The notes under the pieces: model-generated
Told to the model about the DNA's origin: nothing
Database searches by the model: none
The model's input: only the letters and a program-made list of their open reading frames with translations
Origin: Clostridiales bacterium
GTDB lineage: Bacteria; Bacillota; Limnochordia; Darwinibacteriales; B1SED10-159
Direction of reading: 5' to 3'
Assembly: GCA_003551965.1 (NCBI GenBank)
Contig: PUOC01000215.1
Location: 1-44,735, forward strand
Length of the DNA: 44,735 nucleotides
Made by a program: the position numbers and the translations under genes
Shown: positions 5,025-10,883 of the stretch, piece by piece
Layout: each line of letters opens with the position of its first letter
Numbering within the stretch: position 1 is the first letter of the stretch

Positions 5025-6662
5025 TCAGCCCAGGAAGTACTGCAAGTCTTCATCCACCGTACCGATGCCGGAAAGGCCGAATTTGTCCACCAGGACATGG
5101 GCTACGTTCTCTGACAGGAAGGCCGGCAAGGTCGGGCCGAGATGAATGTTCTTCACACCGAGGGATAACAGCGCCAGAAGCACAATCACAGCTTTCTGCT
5201 CGTACCAGGCGATGTTGTAGGAGATTGGCAGCTCGTTGACATCGTCCAATCCCAGCACTTCTTTTAACTTCAATGCCACCACCGCTAAGGAATAGGAGTC
5301 GTTGCACTGCCCGGCGTCTAGAACTCTCGGGATACCTCCGATGTCGCCCAGATCCAATTTGTTGTAACGGTATTTGGCACACCCGGCCGTAAGGATGATG
5401 GTATCCTCGGGCAGTTTTCTGGCAAACTCCGTATAGTACTGCCGATCGTTCATACGGCCATCGCAGCCTGCCATGACGAAGAAGCGGCGAACGGCGCCGT
5501 TTTGGACAGCTTCCACCACTTTGTCCGCCAAACTGAGTACTTGGCTGTGGGCAAAGCCCCCGACCAGCTCGCCTTCTTCAAGGGAAGCCGGTGCCGGGAG
5601 TCGTTTTGCATGGGCAATGATCTCCGTGAAGTCCTTACGGCCGTCGTTCTTCACCGGGACTTGTTTCATGCCGGGATATCCGGTCACTCCCGTGCCGTAC
5701 ATCCGGTGGATGTAGCTGTCCTTTGGCGGTGTGATGCAGTTTGTTGTCATCAGGATAGGGCCGTTGAAGCTTTCGAACTCACGATTCTGCAGCCACCAAG
5801 AATTTCCGTAGTTGCCGACAAAATGCCCGTATTTCTTAAATGCCGGATAGTAATGGGCCGGAAGCATCTCGCTGTGCGTATAGACATCGACACCGGTCCC
5901 TTCGGTCTGCTGCAGCAGCTGCTCCATATCTTTGAGATCATGGCCGCTGATCAAAATGGCCGGGTTGTTGCGGACGCCAAGGTTGACGGTGGTCATTTCC
6001 GGGTTCCCGTAGGATTCGGTGTGCGCTTTGTCCAGTATGGCCATGGCCTCCACCCCGTGCTGCCCAGTCTCCAAGACCAACCCGGTAAGTGTATCGGCAT
6101 CCAGGCTGTCGTCGAGCGTGGCTGCCAAGCCCTTGGACATGAAGTCCAAGACGGCTTCGTTGCTGTAGCCCAAGTGCTGTGCATGGGTGTGATACGCGGC
6201 GGTGCCTTTGAGGCCGTAGACAATCAATTCCCGCAGCGAGCGGATATCTTGGTCATCTGTCTGCAGGATTCCCACAGCGGTGGCCTTTGCCGCCATACCT
6301 TGTTTGTCCTGTTCAGCCCAAACGGCAGCATCATGCTCGGGCAGGTCTGCCCCTGCCTGCTTGAGATCACTGCGAAGTCTGTCGCGTAGGGCCAGGCCCT
6401 CCTGGATACGGGCTGTCATGTCGTCGGCATCGAAATTAGCATTGGTAATGGTAGCAAAGAGGCTGTCTTGAATGTACTTGTCGGCCGCAGCCGTATCCCA
6501 CTGGTGTTTCTGCGCTTCTAAGCGGTGCAGGGCCACGCCCTTTGCGGTGTAGATCAGCAGATCCTGCAGGTTGGCCACATCTTCTGGTTTTCCGCATACA
6601 CCCCGTACTGTACATGCGACTCCCTTGGCTGCTTCTTGACACTGATAGCAAAACATACTCAC
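5025..6662 (-). CDS. hcp: Hydroxylamine reductase (hybrid-cluster protein)
   Basis: Hcp carries a cubane cluster and the hybrid Fe-S-O cluster. It reduces hydroxylamine in vitro and acts as an NO reductase in nitrosative-stress defence. The N-terminal cluster motif is complete (C5, C8, C17, C23 in [10 protein letters not shown]...CTVRGVCGK). Hybrid-cluster ligands are visible in [55 protein letters not shown] and YEQKA. The length of 545 residues matches the family. The start is GTG at 6662 with GGAGG seven bases upstream. The ferredoxin-like gene ends 18 bases before it, so both share the promoter near 7442. The divergent Crp/Fnr regulator and the palindrome at 7470-7483 indicate HcpR-type control. 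Confidence 0.97.
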
Positions 6663-6680
6663 AAGGATCCCTCCATCAAA

Positions 6681-7409
6681 TTATTGTCTTGACTTCTCAC
6701 GGCCGTCTAGTTCCAACACCACTTCCTGCACTTCCAGCGAAGTTCCAGACAGTGCAACGGCCTCCCGGGCCAACTGGGTAATTCCTCCGCAGCAAGGCAC
6801 AACCATACGCAATACCGTGAGCGATCGAATGTTCTGTGCTGCCAATATCTGGGCCAGCTTGTCCACATACCCACTGGAATCGTCCAGTTTTGGGCAGGCA
6901 ATGGCTGTCACTTTGCCTTTCATATACTGTTCGTGGAATCCCCCGCAGGCAAAAGCTGTACAGTCGGCCGCCAGCAGAAGATCTGCTCCTGTAAGGTAGT
7001 CCGCTGCCACTGGAAGCAGGTGCAGCTGGACCGGCCACTGGCGCAGCTGCGAGGGGCGGAATGGACTTCCGTTGTGCTCCGCAACCTCCTTAGGTTCAGC
7101 GGCTGTCTGTGATAGGGCCAGAGACTGCATGCCGGGACAGCCCACTGCCGGCGGCCGCTTTTCGTCTTCGAGAGCCTGCATGCGCTGCTGCACGGCTTCT
7201 TCATCGAATGGCTCCGCCTCCCGTTCCACGATCTGGATTGCCCCTGTGGGACAGGCGGGCAGACAGTCTCCGAGACCGTCACAATAACTATCGCTGATCA
7301 GTTGGGCCCGGCCGTTGACCATGGCTATGGCGCCCTCATGACAGGCTTGGACGCAGAGCTCGCAACCGTTGCAGAGCTCTTCATTGATGGACACGATTTT
7401 CCTTTTCAC
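6681..7409 (-). CDS. 4Fe-4S ferredoxin-domain protein, probable Hcp redox partner
   Basis: A 242-residue iron-sulfur protein. The N-terminal ~60 residues hold one complete cluster motif (CNGCELCVQACHEG) and a second, shortened one (CDGLGDCLPACP) in which one cysteine position is occupied by another residue. The remaining ~170 residues are a conserved but uncharacterised domain with CTAFACGGFHE, ACPKLDD and VPCCGG. Proteins of this build are commonly encoded next to hcp and are thought to pass electrons to it. The start is GTG at 7409 with GGGAGG upstream. It is the first gene of the hcp operon, with a leader of about 26 bases. Membership of the Hcp system rests on context and family association, not on demonstrated activity. 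Confidence 0.85.
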   Translation of the reverse strand: MKRKIVSINEELCNGCELCVQACHEGAIAMVNGRAQLISDSYCDGLGDCLPACPTGAIQIVEREAEPFDEEAVQQRMQALEDEKRPPAVGCPGMQSLALSQTAAEPKEVAEHNGSPFRPSQLRQWPVQLHLLPVAADYLTGADLLLAADCTAFACGGFHEQYMKGKVTAIACPKLDDSSGYVDKLAQILAAQNIRSLTVLRMVVPCCGGITQLAREAVALSGTSLEVQEVVLELDGREKSRQ

Positions 7410-7441
7410 GGCAGTACCTCCCGTTTGACAGGTTCACCTGC

Positions 7442-7447
7442 ATTATA
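7442..7447 (-). promoter_or_regulatory. -10 element of the ferredoxin-hcp promoter
   Basis: A perfect TATAAT on the minus strand, predicting a transcript start near 7435, just before the GTG at 7409. There is no good -35 hexamer. The expected position is next to the palindrome at 7470-7483, as in promoters that need an activator. Confidence 0.7.
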
Positions 7448-7469
7448 GTACAGTGAGAAGAAGGATACG

Positions 7470-7483
7470 GTAACATATGTTAC
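7470..7483. promoter_or_regulatory. Operator palindrome for the divergent Crp/Fnr regulator
   Basis: GTAACATATGTTAC is a perfect 14-bp palindrome. Its centre (7476.5) lies at -41.5 from the start predicted by the TATAAT at 7442-7447, the classic class II position for Crp/Fnr activators. It also lies 45 bases upstream of the divergent regulator gene, so autoregulation is possible. A GTAAC-N4-GTTAC motif resembles sites I recall being proposed for clostridial HcpR; binding itself is inferred. Confidence 0.75.
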
Positions 7484-7527
7484 GTTTTGCTCAATTCTTA
7501 CTTGATAACTCATGTTTGGAGGTTGCT

Positions 7528-8214
7528 ATGAATCGCTACCTTGCCGCCCTGAAGCAATGCACATTTTTCCAAGGGCGATCCTGCGAAGACATCCTTGCCC
7601 TGCTGTCAGCCATTGGCGGCCAGCCCCGCCAATACGGGTCCGACGAGGTTATTGTCGGACAGGGCGACACCGCAGGCCATCTGGGCATTGTCCTCGAAGG
7701 AATGGTCGAGGTACAGAGGGTATTCCCCAACGGCGAAACTGTCACCATGGCCCATCTCAGCAAAGGGCAGACCTTCGGTGAGGCCGTGCTCTTTTCCGAG
7801 CAGCGTCAATATCCGGCTTCGGTCATCCCTGCATCCAACCACTGCACCGTCCTGCTGCTGCCCCGCAGCGATCTGCTGCAGCTGCTGCAGCGAGATGAAA
7901 CCATTTTATTGCGGTTCATTGAAACCATTTCCAACCGCGTTGTCATGCTCACAAACCGCATTGAGGTGCTTTCACTGCCGTCCATTCGTCAGAAGCTGCT
8001 GCACTTTCTCGGCCAGGAGTGCCAGCGGCAAGGACGTCTGTCCATCGAACTGCCCATGACCAAGAAACAGCTCAGTGCACAGCTGGGCGTGCCCCGCCCC
8101 TCGCTGTCCCGCGAACTGCAGCGCATGCAGGCTGACGGTTTGATTCAGTTTGACCGCCGCCGCATTCAGATACGCAGACCGGAAATACTCGATGGCGAGG
8201 GTTTCTACCAATAA
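7528..8214 (+). CDS. Crp/Fnr-family regulator, HcpR-like
   Basis: A 228-residue transcription factor with an N-terminal cyclic-nucleotide-binding-type beta barrel (~1-120), a dimerisation helix and a C-terminal Crp-type helix-turn-helix (KKQLSAQLGVPRPSLSRELQRM, recognition helix at SLSRELQRM). No cysteine cluster of the FNR kind is seen, so the signal is not an FNR-type Fe-S cluster; HcpR proteins are thought to sense NO, possibly through haem. The start is ATG 7528, with GGAGG at 7518-7522; the frame extends upstream, but that part would cover the promoter. It is transcribed away from the hcp operon, with the palindromic operator between them. The regulon is probably hcp, its partner and itself. 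Confidence 0.88.
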   Translation: MNRYLAALKQCTFFQGRSCEDILALLSAIGGQPRQYGSDEVIVGQGDTAGHLGIVLEGMVEVQRVFPNGETVTMAHLSKGQTFGEAVLFSEQRQYPASVIPASNHCTVLLLPRSDLLQLLQRDETILLRFIETISNRVVMLTNRIEVLSLPSIRQKLLHFLGQECQRQGRLSIELPMTKKQLSAQLGVPRPSLSRELQRMQADGLIQFDRRRIQIRRPEILDGEGFYQ

Positions 8215-8263: not shown

Positions 8264-8995
8264 ATGGAACTGTACAACTCCTTGGCCCCCTGGATGCCGC
8301 TGCTGACGCCGGCCGAAAACTATCGCTTGGAGGCCAGCATCTACCGGCGCCTGTTTCTAAGCCACAACCCCCGGACGCGCACTGTTTTGGAACTAGGCTG
8401 CGGGGCCGGCAACAACGCGTCCCACCTCAAACAACGCTTTACCATGACCCTGACCGACCGTTCGCCCCAGATGCTCCGGCTGAGCCGCAGTCAGAACCCC
8501 GAATGCACCCATGTCCAGGGCGATATGCGCACACTGCGCCTGAAACAACGTTTTGATGCCGTCTTTATCCATGACGCCATTGCCTACATGCAAACCGTAG
8601 ACGAACTAAAGGAAGCGCTGGCCACCGCCTATGTTCACTGTGAACCAGGAGGCCAGGTTCTCATCCAGCCGGACTACTTCACAGAAACCTTCAAAGCAGG
8701 AACAAGCCACGGCGGCATCGACCGGGACGGCCGCGGCATGCGGTACTTGATGTGGGTGGAAGAACCGCAGCCCGACTCCCACTTCTACAACACGCATTTT
8801 GCCTTTCTGCTGCGTCATGAAGACGGCTCTGTTACGGCCGAGCAGGAAACACATACCATGGGTCTTTTCTCCGAAGCGCAGTGGCTGGAGAGTTTGGCCG
8901 CTGTTGGACTGACCGGCGAAATATTGCAGGAGCCCTATGCAGACCAAGGAATACCCTACCTGCAGCTTATTTCCGCCCGACGGCCCGCTCCATAA
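8264..8995 (+). CDS. Class I SAM-dependent methyltransferase
   Basis: A 243-residue Rossmann-fold methyltransferase. Motif I is VLELGCGAGNNASHL, followed by an acidic residue in LTDRSPQML, motif II/III VQGDMRTLRL, and FDAVFIHDAIAYM. The C-terminal half carries an antiparallel insert typical of small-molecule methyltransferases related to UbiE/TrmB-like families. ATG 8264 is preceded by CGGAGGTG seven bases upstream. It lies 49 bases after the Crp/Fnr gene on the same strand and could be read through from it. The acceptor substrate is unknown. Confidence 0.88.
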   Translation: MELYNSLAPWMPLLTPAENYRLEASIYRRLFLSHNPRTRTVLELGCGAGNNASHLKQRFTMTLTDRSPQMLRLSRSQNPECTHVQGDMRTLRLKQRFDAVFIHDAIAYMQTVDELKEALATAYVHCEPGGQVLIQPDYFTETFKAGTSHGGIDRDGRGMRYLMWVEEPQPDSHFYNTHFAFLLRHEDGSVTAEQETHTMGLFSEAQWLESLAAVGLTGEILQEPYADQGIPYLQLISARRPAP

Positions 8996-9088: not shown

Positions 9089-9114
9089 GAGAGCAATTGC
9101 TATGGGAAATTGAG

Positions 9115-9489
9115 GTGATCTGTCTGCAAACCGCGACGATCGAGATCGTATACGCAGAAAGAACCTGTTCATCGTGTTACATCAAGCTTCCGTATATCCG
9201 CGCCGTGGCAGAGGAAATCACTGCACGGCATCCCTCTGTCCTGTGGAAAGAAACACCGCTGGCCAGTCTCGAGGAAATCGAGGCCTTCAGGCACCGCAGC
9301 GGGACGCAGGCATTTCCGGCTGTGATGGTGGCAGGGCAGACGGTCTCTGCGGGTGTCATTCCCCGCCTCGAAGATGTGGAGGCCTGCCTAGCGGAGTTGA
9401 GCGCTCAAAATGGCAGTGACCTGCGGACGCAGCCGTGGAATGACGGCAGCTGCACCGAATGTCAAGGCCCAGCAGGCAGATCATGCTGA
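9115..9489 (+). CDS. Small thioredoxin-fold protein with a CSSC motif
   Basis: A protein of about 125 residues that begins with a beta strand (TIEIVYAERTCSSC) and a CxxC redox pair, followed by a helix. A later strand-turn, GTQAFPAVMVAGQTV, resembles the cis-proline region of thioredoxin-like folds. The C-terminal tail has three more cysteines (CTECQGPAGRSC). The start is uncertain: GTG 9115 is used, but CTG 9124 lies six bases after a good GAGGTG, and TTG 9097 is nearly on top of the predicted transcript start. The gene ends 26 bases before the UroD-thioredoxin fusion gene and is probably in one operon with it, suggesting that the two exchange thiols. The function is not established. Confidence 0.75.
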   Translation: MICLQTATIEIVYAERTCSSCYIKLPYIRAVAEEITARHPSVLWKETPLASLEEIEAFRHRSGTQAFPAVMVAGQTVSAGVIPRLEDVEACLAELSAQNGSDLRTQPWNDGSCTECQGPAGRSC

Positions 9490-9515
9490 GGGCATCATGG
9501 GAGGTATGAGCAAAC

Positions 9516-10883
9516 ATGACAAAACGCGAAACACTGTTCGCCGCTTTGCGCAATGAAGAAGTAGAACAAGTACCATGGGTTCCGTTTGTGGGCTGCCACG
9601 GAGCCAAGTTGCAGGGGGTTTCAGCTGAAACGTATTTCAAATCCACGGAACTGCTGTTTAAGGGTGCAGAACTTGCCTACGAAAAATACGATCCTTCGGG
9701 CTTGCCAGCTTTCTTCGATCTGCAGGTAGAAGCCGAAGCCTTAGGCTGCGATGTTCAATACGCAGATACCAATCCGCCTTCGGTGAAAACGCACCCCTTA
9801 AGCGACAACCGCAGCATCGAACAGCTCTCCCTGCCGACCAAAGACGACGGCCGCTTTCCGATAGTGCTTGATGCAATCCGCCGAATATCCGTATCCTTAG
9901 GCGACAAGATCGGAATCTACGGCCTCATCACCGGTCCATTCACCCTGGCCCTGCATCTGCGCGGCACCAATATCTTCTATGACATGCTCGACGACCCCGG
10001 GTATGTACAGGAACTGATGACCTTCTGCACCGACGTGGCTGTGGAGGTCAGCAGAATGTATATGGAAGCCGGCGCCGACATCATTGCCGTGGTGGATCCC
10101 ATGACGTCGCAGATTTCGGCGTCGGATTTCGAACAGTTCGTATCGCCCCATGCAGAAAAGATCTTCGCATACATTCGTTCTCAGGATAGGTATTCATCAT
10201 TCTTTGTCTGCGGCAATGCCAAGAACAACATCGAGGCCATGTGCAAGACAAAGCCTGACAACGTTTCCATTGACGAAAACATTCCCTTGGATTATGTCAG
10301 AGACATCTGCCGAACGCACGGCATATCCTTCGGAGGCAACATCAAACTTACGCTGTCCATTCTCTTCGGCAGCGTAGCGGACAATATGCGGGACGCCATG
10401 AACTGCCTGGATATCGGTGGCAAGAAAGGGTTTATCCTAGCGCCAGGGTGTGATCTTCCCTTTGACTCTCCCGAAGAAAACCTGCAGGCCATTGCGTCAG
10501 TGGCCCGAGGTGAGCTTCCGAACCTAGAAGATGACACCAATGCACTGGAAAATATCGATGTAGAACTGCCCGACTATGATCGGGAAGCCCAGGTTATTGT
10601 CGATGTGATCACCATTGACTCCGCCTCCTGCGCTCCATGCCAGTATATGGTGGAAGCGGTGGCCCGCAATGTGGAACAGTTTGATGATCAAGCCGTGTAC
10701 CGCGAACACAAAATCAAAGACAAAGAAGCCGTCGTCGTCATGTCGAAGCTGGGCGTCACCAACATCCCTACAACGGTAATCGACGGGACAGTCAAGTTTG
10801 TCAGCCGCATCCCCGATGAACACAGCCTCTACCGGGAAATTGAAGCGGCGGTGGCCGCTAAGCAAAGCCGGCTGTCGCGCTGA
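9516..10883 (+). CDS. UroD/MtaA-like protein fused to a C-terminal thioredoxin-like domain
   Basis: Residues ~1-335 form a uroporphyrinogen decarboxylase-fold domain of the kind used by corrinoid-dependent methyltransferases (LITGPFTLALHLRG, AGADIIAVVDP, FFVCGNAKNNIE, LAPGCDLPFDSPEEN). Zinc-type ligand positions C232 and C312 are kept, but the usual HxC histidine is Phe230. After a linker rich in acidic residues, residues ~360-450 form a thioredoxin-like domain with CAPC at 372-375 and a cis-proline region TNIPTTVID. The start ATG 9516 has GGGAGG upstream. A strong terminator follows at 10891. Plausible roles are methyl or thiol transfer with its own redox partner; true UroD activity is unlikely because the haem pathway genes are absent here. 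Confidence 0.88.
   Translation: MTKRETLFAALRNEEVEQVPWVPFVGCHGAKLQGVSAETYFKSTELLFKGAELAYEKYDPSGLPAFFDLQVEAEALGCDVQYADTNPPSVKTHPLSDNRSIEQLSLPTKDDGRFPIVLDAIRRISVSLGDKIGIYGLITGPFTLALHLRGTNIFYDMLDDPGYVQELMTFCTDVAVEVSRMYMEAGADIIAVVDPMTSQISASDFEQFVSPHAEKIFAYIRSQDRYSSFFVCGNAKNNIEAMCKTKPDNVSIDENIPLDYVRDICRTHGISFGGNIKLTLSILFGSVADNMRDAMNCLDIGGKKGFILAPGCDLPFDSPEENLQAIASVARGELPNLEDDTNALENIDVELPDYDREAQVIVDVITIDSASCAPCQYMVEAVARNVEQFDDQAVYREHKIKDKEAVVVMSKLGVTNIPTTVIDGTVKFVSRIPDEHSLYREIEAAVAAKQSRLSR

What the first reader, a model, noticed from the sequence alone, without database searches (positions are those of the whole stretch)
9115..10883. UroD/MtaA-like domain fused to a CAPC thioredoxin domain, next to a small CSSC protein
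The barrel domain has lost the HxC histidine (Phe230) but keeps C232 and C312, and it carries its own thioredoxin-like domain (CAPC 372-375). A second small redox protein with CSSC and extra cysteines is encoded just before it. This suggests a methyl- or thiol-transfer enzyme with a dedicated redox relay, a combination I do not know as a described system.
Basis: partly seen in the sequence, partly recalled or inferred. Interest (0 to 1): 0.6.

Follow-up and report, generated by a model that had tools for sequence, protein, structure and literature searches.

The report
Methyltransferase–thioredoxin fusion, acceptor unknown
The window holds a barrel enzyme related to methanogens' B12-dependent methyltransferases, fused to a thioredoxin and paired with a second small thioredoxin; hundreds of anaerobes carry this uncharacterised enzyme, often beside genes that appear to strip methyl groups from methanol or methylated sugars, and where the methyl group goes next is unknown.

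Summary
P0002 (9516-10883) is a URO-D/MtaA-type barrel fused to a thioredoxin fold with CAPC 372-375; the upstream ORF (9115-9489) is a separate thioredoxin fold with CSSC (models pLDDT 92 and 84). Phe in place of the zinc-ligand His is a family trait: FVCG and the thioredoxin CxxC are present in 90 of 90 loci examined. On the same strand in the 90 loci: a COG0523 (CobW) GTPase in 71, a corrinoid protein in 42, an adjacent small CxxC thioredoxin in 20 or a fused second thioredoxin in 23; less often a second URO-D protein beside rhamnose or galactose genes, MtaB, RACo or a homocysteine methyltransferase. The window gene itself has only the small thioredoxin beside it; corrinoid and RACo genes lie elsewhere in its genome. 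Eight Bacteroidota genomes with the module show no separate folate-accepting methyltransferase. Best reading: an acceptor-side methyltransferase of corrinoid-dependent demethylation, with thioredoxins supplying or resetting a thiol. Direction, acceptor, metal and relay are inferred. I found no published description. New variant of a known kind.

The parts
9115..9489 (+). Small stand-alone thioredoxin-fold protein, 124 aa from GTG 9115 (TTG 9097 possible); CSSC at 9166-9177
   Evidence: conserved upstream of the fusion in G001 and G002, related small gene downstream in 17 other loci
9500..9504 (+). GGAGG, likely ribosome binding site of the fusion gene, 11 bases before ATG 9516
   Evidence: sequence
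9516..10883 (+). URO-D/MtaA-type barrel fused to a thioredoxin domain, 455 aa
9519..10508 (+). URO-D domain (residues 2-331)
   Evidence: Pfam E=8.9e-63; top PDB match MtaA 4ay8/4ay7
10203..10214 (+). F230-V-C232-G: zinc-ligand His of MtaA replaced by Phe
   Evidence: FVCG in 90 of 90
10449..10451 (+). C312, position of the third zinc ligand of MtaA
   Evidence: 77 of 77
10590..10880 (+). C-terminal thioredoxin-fold domain (about residues 359-455)
   Evidence: Pfam Thioredoxin_3, DSSP order E-H-E-H-E-E-H on the model
10629..10640 (+). CAPC redox motif, residues 372-375

Best explanation
The fusion is a corrinoid-dependent methyltransferase of the MtaA type working on the acceptor side. A partner enzyme (MtaB for methanol, or a second URO-D protein, probably for a methylated sugar) puts a methyl group on a corrinoid protein, and the fusion takes it off and passes it to a thiol. 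A metal held by C232, C312 and a ligand other than the usual His, loaded in most lineages by a COG0523 GTPase, activates that thiol. The CxPC thioredoxin domain supplies the thiol or resets oxidised cysteines, and the small CxxC protein (or a second fused thioredoxin domain in other phyla) exchanges electrons with it. Shown: domains, folds, motifs, conserved pairing, conserved neighbourhood. Inferred: the corrinoid partner of the window protein itself, the acceptor-side direction, the metal, the thiol acceptor and the relay.
For: MtaA is the closest structure by sequence and by fold and MtaA/CmuA models are the best NCBIfam hits in 58 of 58 members. On the same strand in 90 loci: COG0523 71, corrinoid protein 42, small thioredoxin 20, fused second thioredoxin 23, second URO-D 23, MetH-activation-like 22, RACo 8, MtaB 4. 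Candidate substrate enzymes change between loci (MtaB; URO-D proteins beside RhaT/RhaM, RhaA/rhamnosidase or galactokinase) while corrinoid protein, fusion and COG0523 stay, the pattern of an acceptor-side enzyme. Eight Bacteroidota genomes with the module have only two Pterin_bind proteins each, one of MetH length and one that by length and score looks like FolP, so no separate methyl-corrinoid:folate methyltransferase is evident. All 10 relatives' genomes with the fusion hold a B12-binding_2 protein, against 28 of 51 relatives without it (the genomes are related, so the p of 0.005 is only indicative). COG0523 subfamily 13 is reported to cluster with mtaA/mtaB/mtaC (PMC2770081). The small-thioredoxin pairing follows one clade of the tree, support 100/99.
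Against: The window gene has no corrinoid, COG0523 or substrate-enzyme gene beside it. Twelve loci hold a homocysteine methyltransferase, which could be the true acceptor there and leave the fusion another role. Loss of the His breaks the site known to bind thiols in MtaA. Many loci have fusion and COG0523 only, with no corrinoid gene in reach. Most fused second thioredoxin domains have lost CxxC, so a second dithiol is not always needed.
Confidence: 0.5

Rival explanations
1. Donor-side enzyme: the fusion demethylates a methyl-sulfur or methyl-selenium compound (or a mixed disulfide held on its thioredoxin domain) and methylates the corrinoid protein, as proposed for the Mlp proteins; homocysteine methyltransferase or MetH then takes the methyl group.
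For: Eleven loci pair the two-thioredoxin form with a homocysteine methyltransferase. Fifteen loci have a corrinoid protein and the fusion but no other candidate donor or acceptor enzyme of the kinds searched. Mlp2 of C. ljungdahlii methylates selenide in the reverse assay (PMC10418091).
Against: It does not explain why MtaB or sugar-linked URO-D proteins share the operon in 27 loci, nor the loci without a homocysteine methyltransferase.
Confidence: 0.25
2. Accessory role: the fusion is not itself a methyltransferase in the cycle but a redox or metal-handling protein that keeps the corrinoid system reduced or assembled.
For: The thiol-binding His is lost in all members; COG0523 and activation-type proteins (RACo, MetH-activation-like) are frequent neighbours; two thioredoxin modules are common.
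Against: Invariant residues sit at the C-terminal ends of the barrel strands where MtaA has its active site, which argues for catalysis; RACo is already a corrinoid activator in several of these loci.
Confidence: 0.12
3. Folate-independent methionine synthase: the fusion methylates homocysteine from the corrinoid protein.
For: No MetE in any of 10 genomes and no homocysteine S-methyltransferase domain in G041, G045, G049 and G055; homoserine/threonine-type genes follow the fusion in G001 and G002 (read from sequence).
Against: Those four genomes also show no strong Cys/Met PLP enzyme, so they may not make homocysteine at all; eight Bacteroidota genomes with the module already have a MetH-length protein.
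Confidence: 0.1
4. True uroporphyrinogen decarboxylase of haem synthesis.
For: Pfam names the domain URO-D.
Against: The hemE model scores 74 bits against a cut-off of 303, while MtaA-type models score 132-176; the neighbourhood is corrinoid methyl transfer.
Confidence: 0.01

Closest known systems
MtaA / MtbA, methylcobamide:coenzyme M methyltransferases of methanogens
   Same: Same barrel fold and best sequence and structure match; in relatives next to corrinoid protein, COG0523 and sometimes MtaB
   Different: His of the His-Cys-Cys zinc site replaced by Phe in all 90 loci; C-terminal thioredoxin domain; scores below curated cut-offs; found here in bacteria, where CoM is not the expected acceptor (own knowledge)
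Mlp1-3 proteins of type 1 mlp gene clusters (Kountz and Balskus, PMC10418091)
   Same: Bacterial MtaA-like proteins beside corrinoid protein and Ram/RACE activator, with no folate methyltransferase nearby
   Different: Mlps keep His-Cys-Cys with few exceptions; no thioredoxin fusion or partner is mentioned in the main text
MTH895/ArsE-family and other Thioredoxin_3 proteins
   Same: Closest curated thioredoxin models for the fused domain and, weakly, the small protein
   Different: Below the NCBIfam cut-offs; here tied to a methyltransferase
COG0523 subfamily 13 (Haas et al. 2009, PMC2770081)
   Same: COG0523 GTPase genes clustering with corrinoid methyltransferases, as in 71 of 90 loci here
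   Different: Subfamily membership was not tested; many of the proteins here carry NGS(V/I)FCxC

Membership tests
MtaA/MtbA-type methylcobamide:CoM methyltransferase | URO-D/MtaA barrel fold | tested here: met
   Foldseek top match 4ay8, TMt 0.90; Pfam URO-D
MtaA/MtbA-type methylcobamide:CoM methyltransferase | His-Cys-Cys zinc site | tested here: not met
   Phe at the His position in 90 of 90 loci; both Cys kept
MtaA/MtbA-type methylcobamide:CoM methyltransferase | Score above curated NCBIfam cut-offs (MtaA_Meth 400, mtaA_cmuA 235.4, MtbA 600) | tested here: not met
   150.5, 171.4 and 131.6 bits
MtaA/MtbA-type methylcobamide:CoM methyltransferase | Methyl transfer from a corrinoid protein to coenzyme M | not testable with these tools
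   Needs an assay; corrinoid proteins are encoded in the genome
[quoted passage not shown]
   Not so in the window; definition from PMC10418091
Type 1 mlp gene cluster (Mlp) | His-Cys-Cys site | tested here: not met
Thioredoxin fold (fused domain) | Beta-alpha-beta-alpha-beta-beta-alpha order with CxxC at the start of helix 1 | tested here: met
   Model; Thioredoxin_3 above its cut-off
Thioredoxin fold (small protein) | Beta-alpha-beta-alpha-beta-beta-alpha order with CxxC at the start of helix 1 | tested here: met
   Model; PDB matches; no Pfam hit of its own, 14 of the 16 A2 proteins hit
Uroporphyrinogen decarboxylase HemE | Score above the hemE equivalog cut-off (302.95 bits) | tested here: not met
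   73.9 bits

The most novel reading that the evidence does not exclude
A widespread bacterial route in which methyl groups from methanol and O-methyl sugars leave the corrinoid protein not to folate or coenzyme M but to a thiol handled by a fused thioredoxin (for example a persulfide on C372, released as methanethiol by disulfide formation and reset by the second thioredoxin), at a metal site that has lost the canonical histidine: a thioredoxin-coupled methyltransferase, a kind of terminal methyl acceptor system that I do not find described.
Probability: 0.25. Interest if true: 0.85.

Novelty: new variant of a known kind. Interest (0 to 1): 0.6.

Why it matters
It marks a large, uncharacterised clade of MtaA-like enzymes in anaerobes of at least six phyla, including named cultivated Bacteroidota. 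It makes an open question testable: how bacteria with no evident separate folate-dependent methyl acceptor enzyme dispose of methyl groups taken from methanol and methylated sugars. If the acceptor is a thiol, the module could be a source of methanethiol or methionine in anoxic sediments and digesters.

Tried and rejected
Viral collections: no relatives. Haem-synthesis URO-D: rejected on scores and context. Extra cysteines of the small protein as part of a relay: rejected, not conserved. Sole methionine synthase in genomes without MetE and the homocysteine methyltransferase domain: weakened, as four of them also lack a strong Cys/Met PLP enzyme. C171 as a conserved ligand: rejected, not invariant. 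That the stand-alone small thioredoxin and the fused second thioredoxin are the same domain: not established, hhalign probability only 17.5, although both match Thioredoxin_3. Distances between C232, C312, H28, C78 and the CxPC motif: not possible, model coordinates are not released. Complex prediction of the two window proteins: no tool for it. Literature searches listed no description of the fusion, judged from titles and abstracts and two papers read; subscription journals are mostly not held.

Full report
What is there. The window encodes, on the + strand, a small protein (9115-9489, GTG start; TTG at 9097 possible) and, 26 bp further on, a 455-residue protein (9516-10883). The large protein is a URO-D domain (E=8.9e-63, residues 2-331) followed by Thioredoxin_3 (E=1.7e-6, residues 366-438). 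The nearest solved structure by sequence is MtaA of Methanosarcina mazei; the alignment puts F230-V-C232-G on its His-Ile-Cys-Gly and C312 on the Cys of its Ala-Pro-Gly-Cys. His-Cys-Cys is the zinc site of S-methyltransferases of this superfamily (PMC10418091). The AlphaFold model (pLDDT 92.3, pTM 0.87) is a barrel plus a C-terminal thioredoxin fold, and MtaA is the top PDB match (TMt 0.90). The small protein models as E-H-E-H-E-E-H with CSSC at the start of helix 1 (pLDDT 84.4); the best PDB matches are thioredoxins, with ArsD among them.

More than chance. FVCG and the thioredoxin CxxC are present in all 90 loci examined, with CAPC in 79, CPPC in 6 and CAAC in 5. In 77 aligned members C312 and many residues at the C-terminal ends of the barrel strands are invariant (H28 in 75 of 77; D68, Q70, E72, E74, C78, H93, H147, D194, D253, E254 in all; strand positions). 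That set was chosen by the CxPC motif, so its CxPC invariance is circular; one search is not. Of eight motifs printed for other URO-D proteins of the same genome, six are His-x-Cys.

The pair. The small protein is conserved upstream in both relatives of the same family, with fewer changes at codon positions 1 and 2 than at position 3. A related small CxxC protein (hhalign probability 97.2) lies immediately downstream of the fusion in 17 further loci. In a tree of 77 fusions the 17 rows with the small gene all fall in one clade of 24 with support 100/99, the window included; five of the seven without it form a subclade (L068, L069, L073, L075, L081) that also has no COG0523 gene in reach. In 23 other loci the fusion itself carries a second thioredoxin domain, most of which have lost CxxC. 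So 43 of 90 loci have a second thioredoxin in cis or in trans.

The neighbourhood. In the 90 loci the same-strand partners are COG0523/CobW (71), a corrinoid protein (42), a second URO-D protein (23), a MetH-activation-like protein (22), a homocysteine methyltransferase (12), RACo (8) and MtaB (4). Second URO-D proteins lie near a rhamnose transporter and mutarotase (L097; same clusters in L108 and L113), rhamnose isomerase and a rhamnosidase (L088; same clusters in L098) or galactokinase (L099; same cluster in L104, L110, L115), which suggests O-methyl sugars as substrates; this is inference. Haas et al. (PMC2770081) reported COG0523 subfamily 13 clustering with mtaA, mtaB and mtaC. The window gene has none of these beside it. 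Its genome has a corrinoid protein, RACo and a PocR/AraC regulator together on contig C48, COG0523 matches on C295, C15 and weakly C117 and 25 URO-D matches. In G002, of the same family, a corrinoid protein lies with three URO-D proteins. All 10 relatives' genomes with the fusion have a B12-binding_2 protein, against 28 of 51 relatives without it (Fisher p=0.005; genomes are related, so this is only indicative).

How it probably works. Substrate enzymes change from locus to locus while corrinoid protein, fusion and COG0523 stay, the pattern of an acceptor-side enzyme. In eight Bacteroidota genomes with the module the only Pterin_bind proteins are one of MetH length and one that by length and score looks like FolP, so no separate methyl-corrinoid:folate methyltransferase is evident. 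I therefore propose that the fusion takes the methyl group from the corrinoid protein and gives it to a thiol, at a metal site made by C232, C312 and a replacement for the lost His, with the thioredoxin domain supplying the thiol or resetting oxidised cysteines and the second thioredoxin exchanging electrons with it. Shown: domains, folds, motifs, pairing, neighbourhood. Inferred: corrinoid partner of the window protein itself, direction, acceptor, metal and relay. I put about 0.85 on corrinoid-dependent methyl transfer, 0.5 on the acceptor-side reading with a thiol, and less on any one thioredoxin mechanism.

Limits. The 80 loci are those nearest the query, not a random sample, and many are fragments of metagenome assemblies, so absence of a neighbour is weak evidence. 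Genes were called by a simple longest-ORF rule and partners assigned by BLAST to a few Pfam-checked references. Twelve loci contain a homocysteine methyltransferase, which may be the true acceptor there. Homoserine/threonine-type genes after the fusion in G001 and G002 were read from sequence, not tested with Pfam.

Known or new. In the best reading the enzyme works like MtaA, but it fails two membership tests: the His of the zinc site and the curated score cut-offs. It also differs from the Mlp proteins of Kountz and Balskus, which keep His-Cys-Cys and for which no thioredoxin partner is mentioned in the main text. My searches listed no paper describing the fusion. I rate it a new variant of a known kind.

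Noticed in passing
L097, L108, L113, L088, L098, L099, L104, L110, L115: Second URO-D proteins near rhamnose transporter/mutarotase, rhamnose isomerase/rhamnosidase or galactokinase genes and a corrinoid protein: candidate corrinoid-dependent O-methyl-sugar demethylases.
   Followed up: partly
COBW genes of many loci, for example L099:9900-10823: The COG0523 proteins often carry NGS(V/I)FCxC where I would expect the usual GCxCC metal motif (own knowledge).
   Followed up: no
L101, L093, L111 and other 539-aa forms: The fused second thioredoxin domain has mostly lost CxxC but keeps a KEW(I/L)K motif; L088, L098 and L125 keep CxxC.
   Followed up: partly
L068, L069, L075, L081: A clostridial subclade has the fusion without COG0523 or small thioredoxin gene, inside what reads like a glycerol-3-phosphate operon (read from sequence only).
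   Followed up: no
G000 (whole genome of the window): 25 URO-D domain matches in one 3.9-Mb genome, most of the motifs printed being His-x-Cys.
   Followed up: partly
L158, L159, L163: In genomes of another family the only corrinoid protein lies directly after a gene that reads like RACo and one that reads like folD (read from sequence).
   Followed up: no
window 5025-8214: A prismane/hybrid-cluster protein and a 4Fe-4S protein lie divergent to a Crp/Fnr-type regulator, followed by a SAM-dependent methyltransferase (8264-8995) just upstream of the pair.
   Followed up: no
L170 (OY725850.1, 137-1480): A 43% relative covering 98% of the fusion lies on a 25.8-kb circular record filed as a plasmid of Subdoligranulum variabile.
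   Followed up: no
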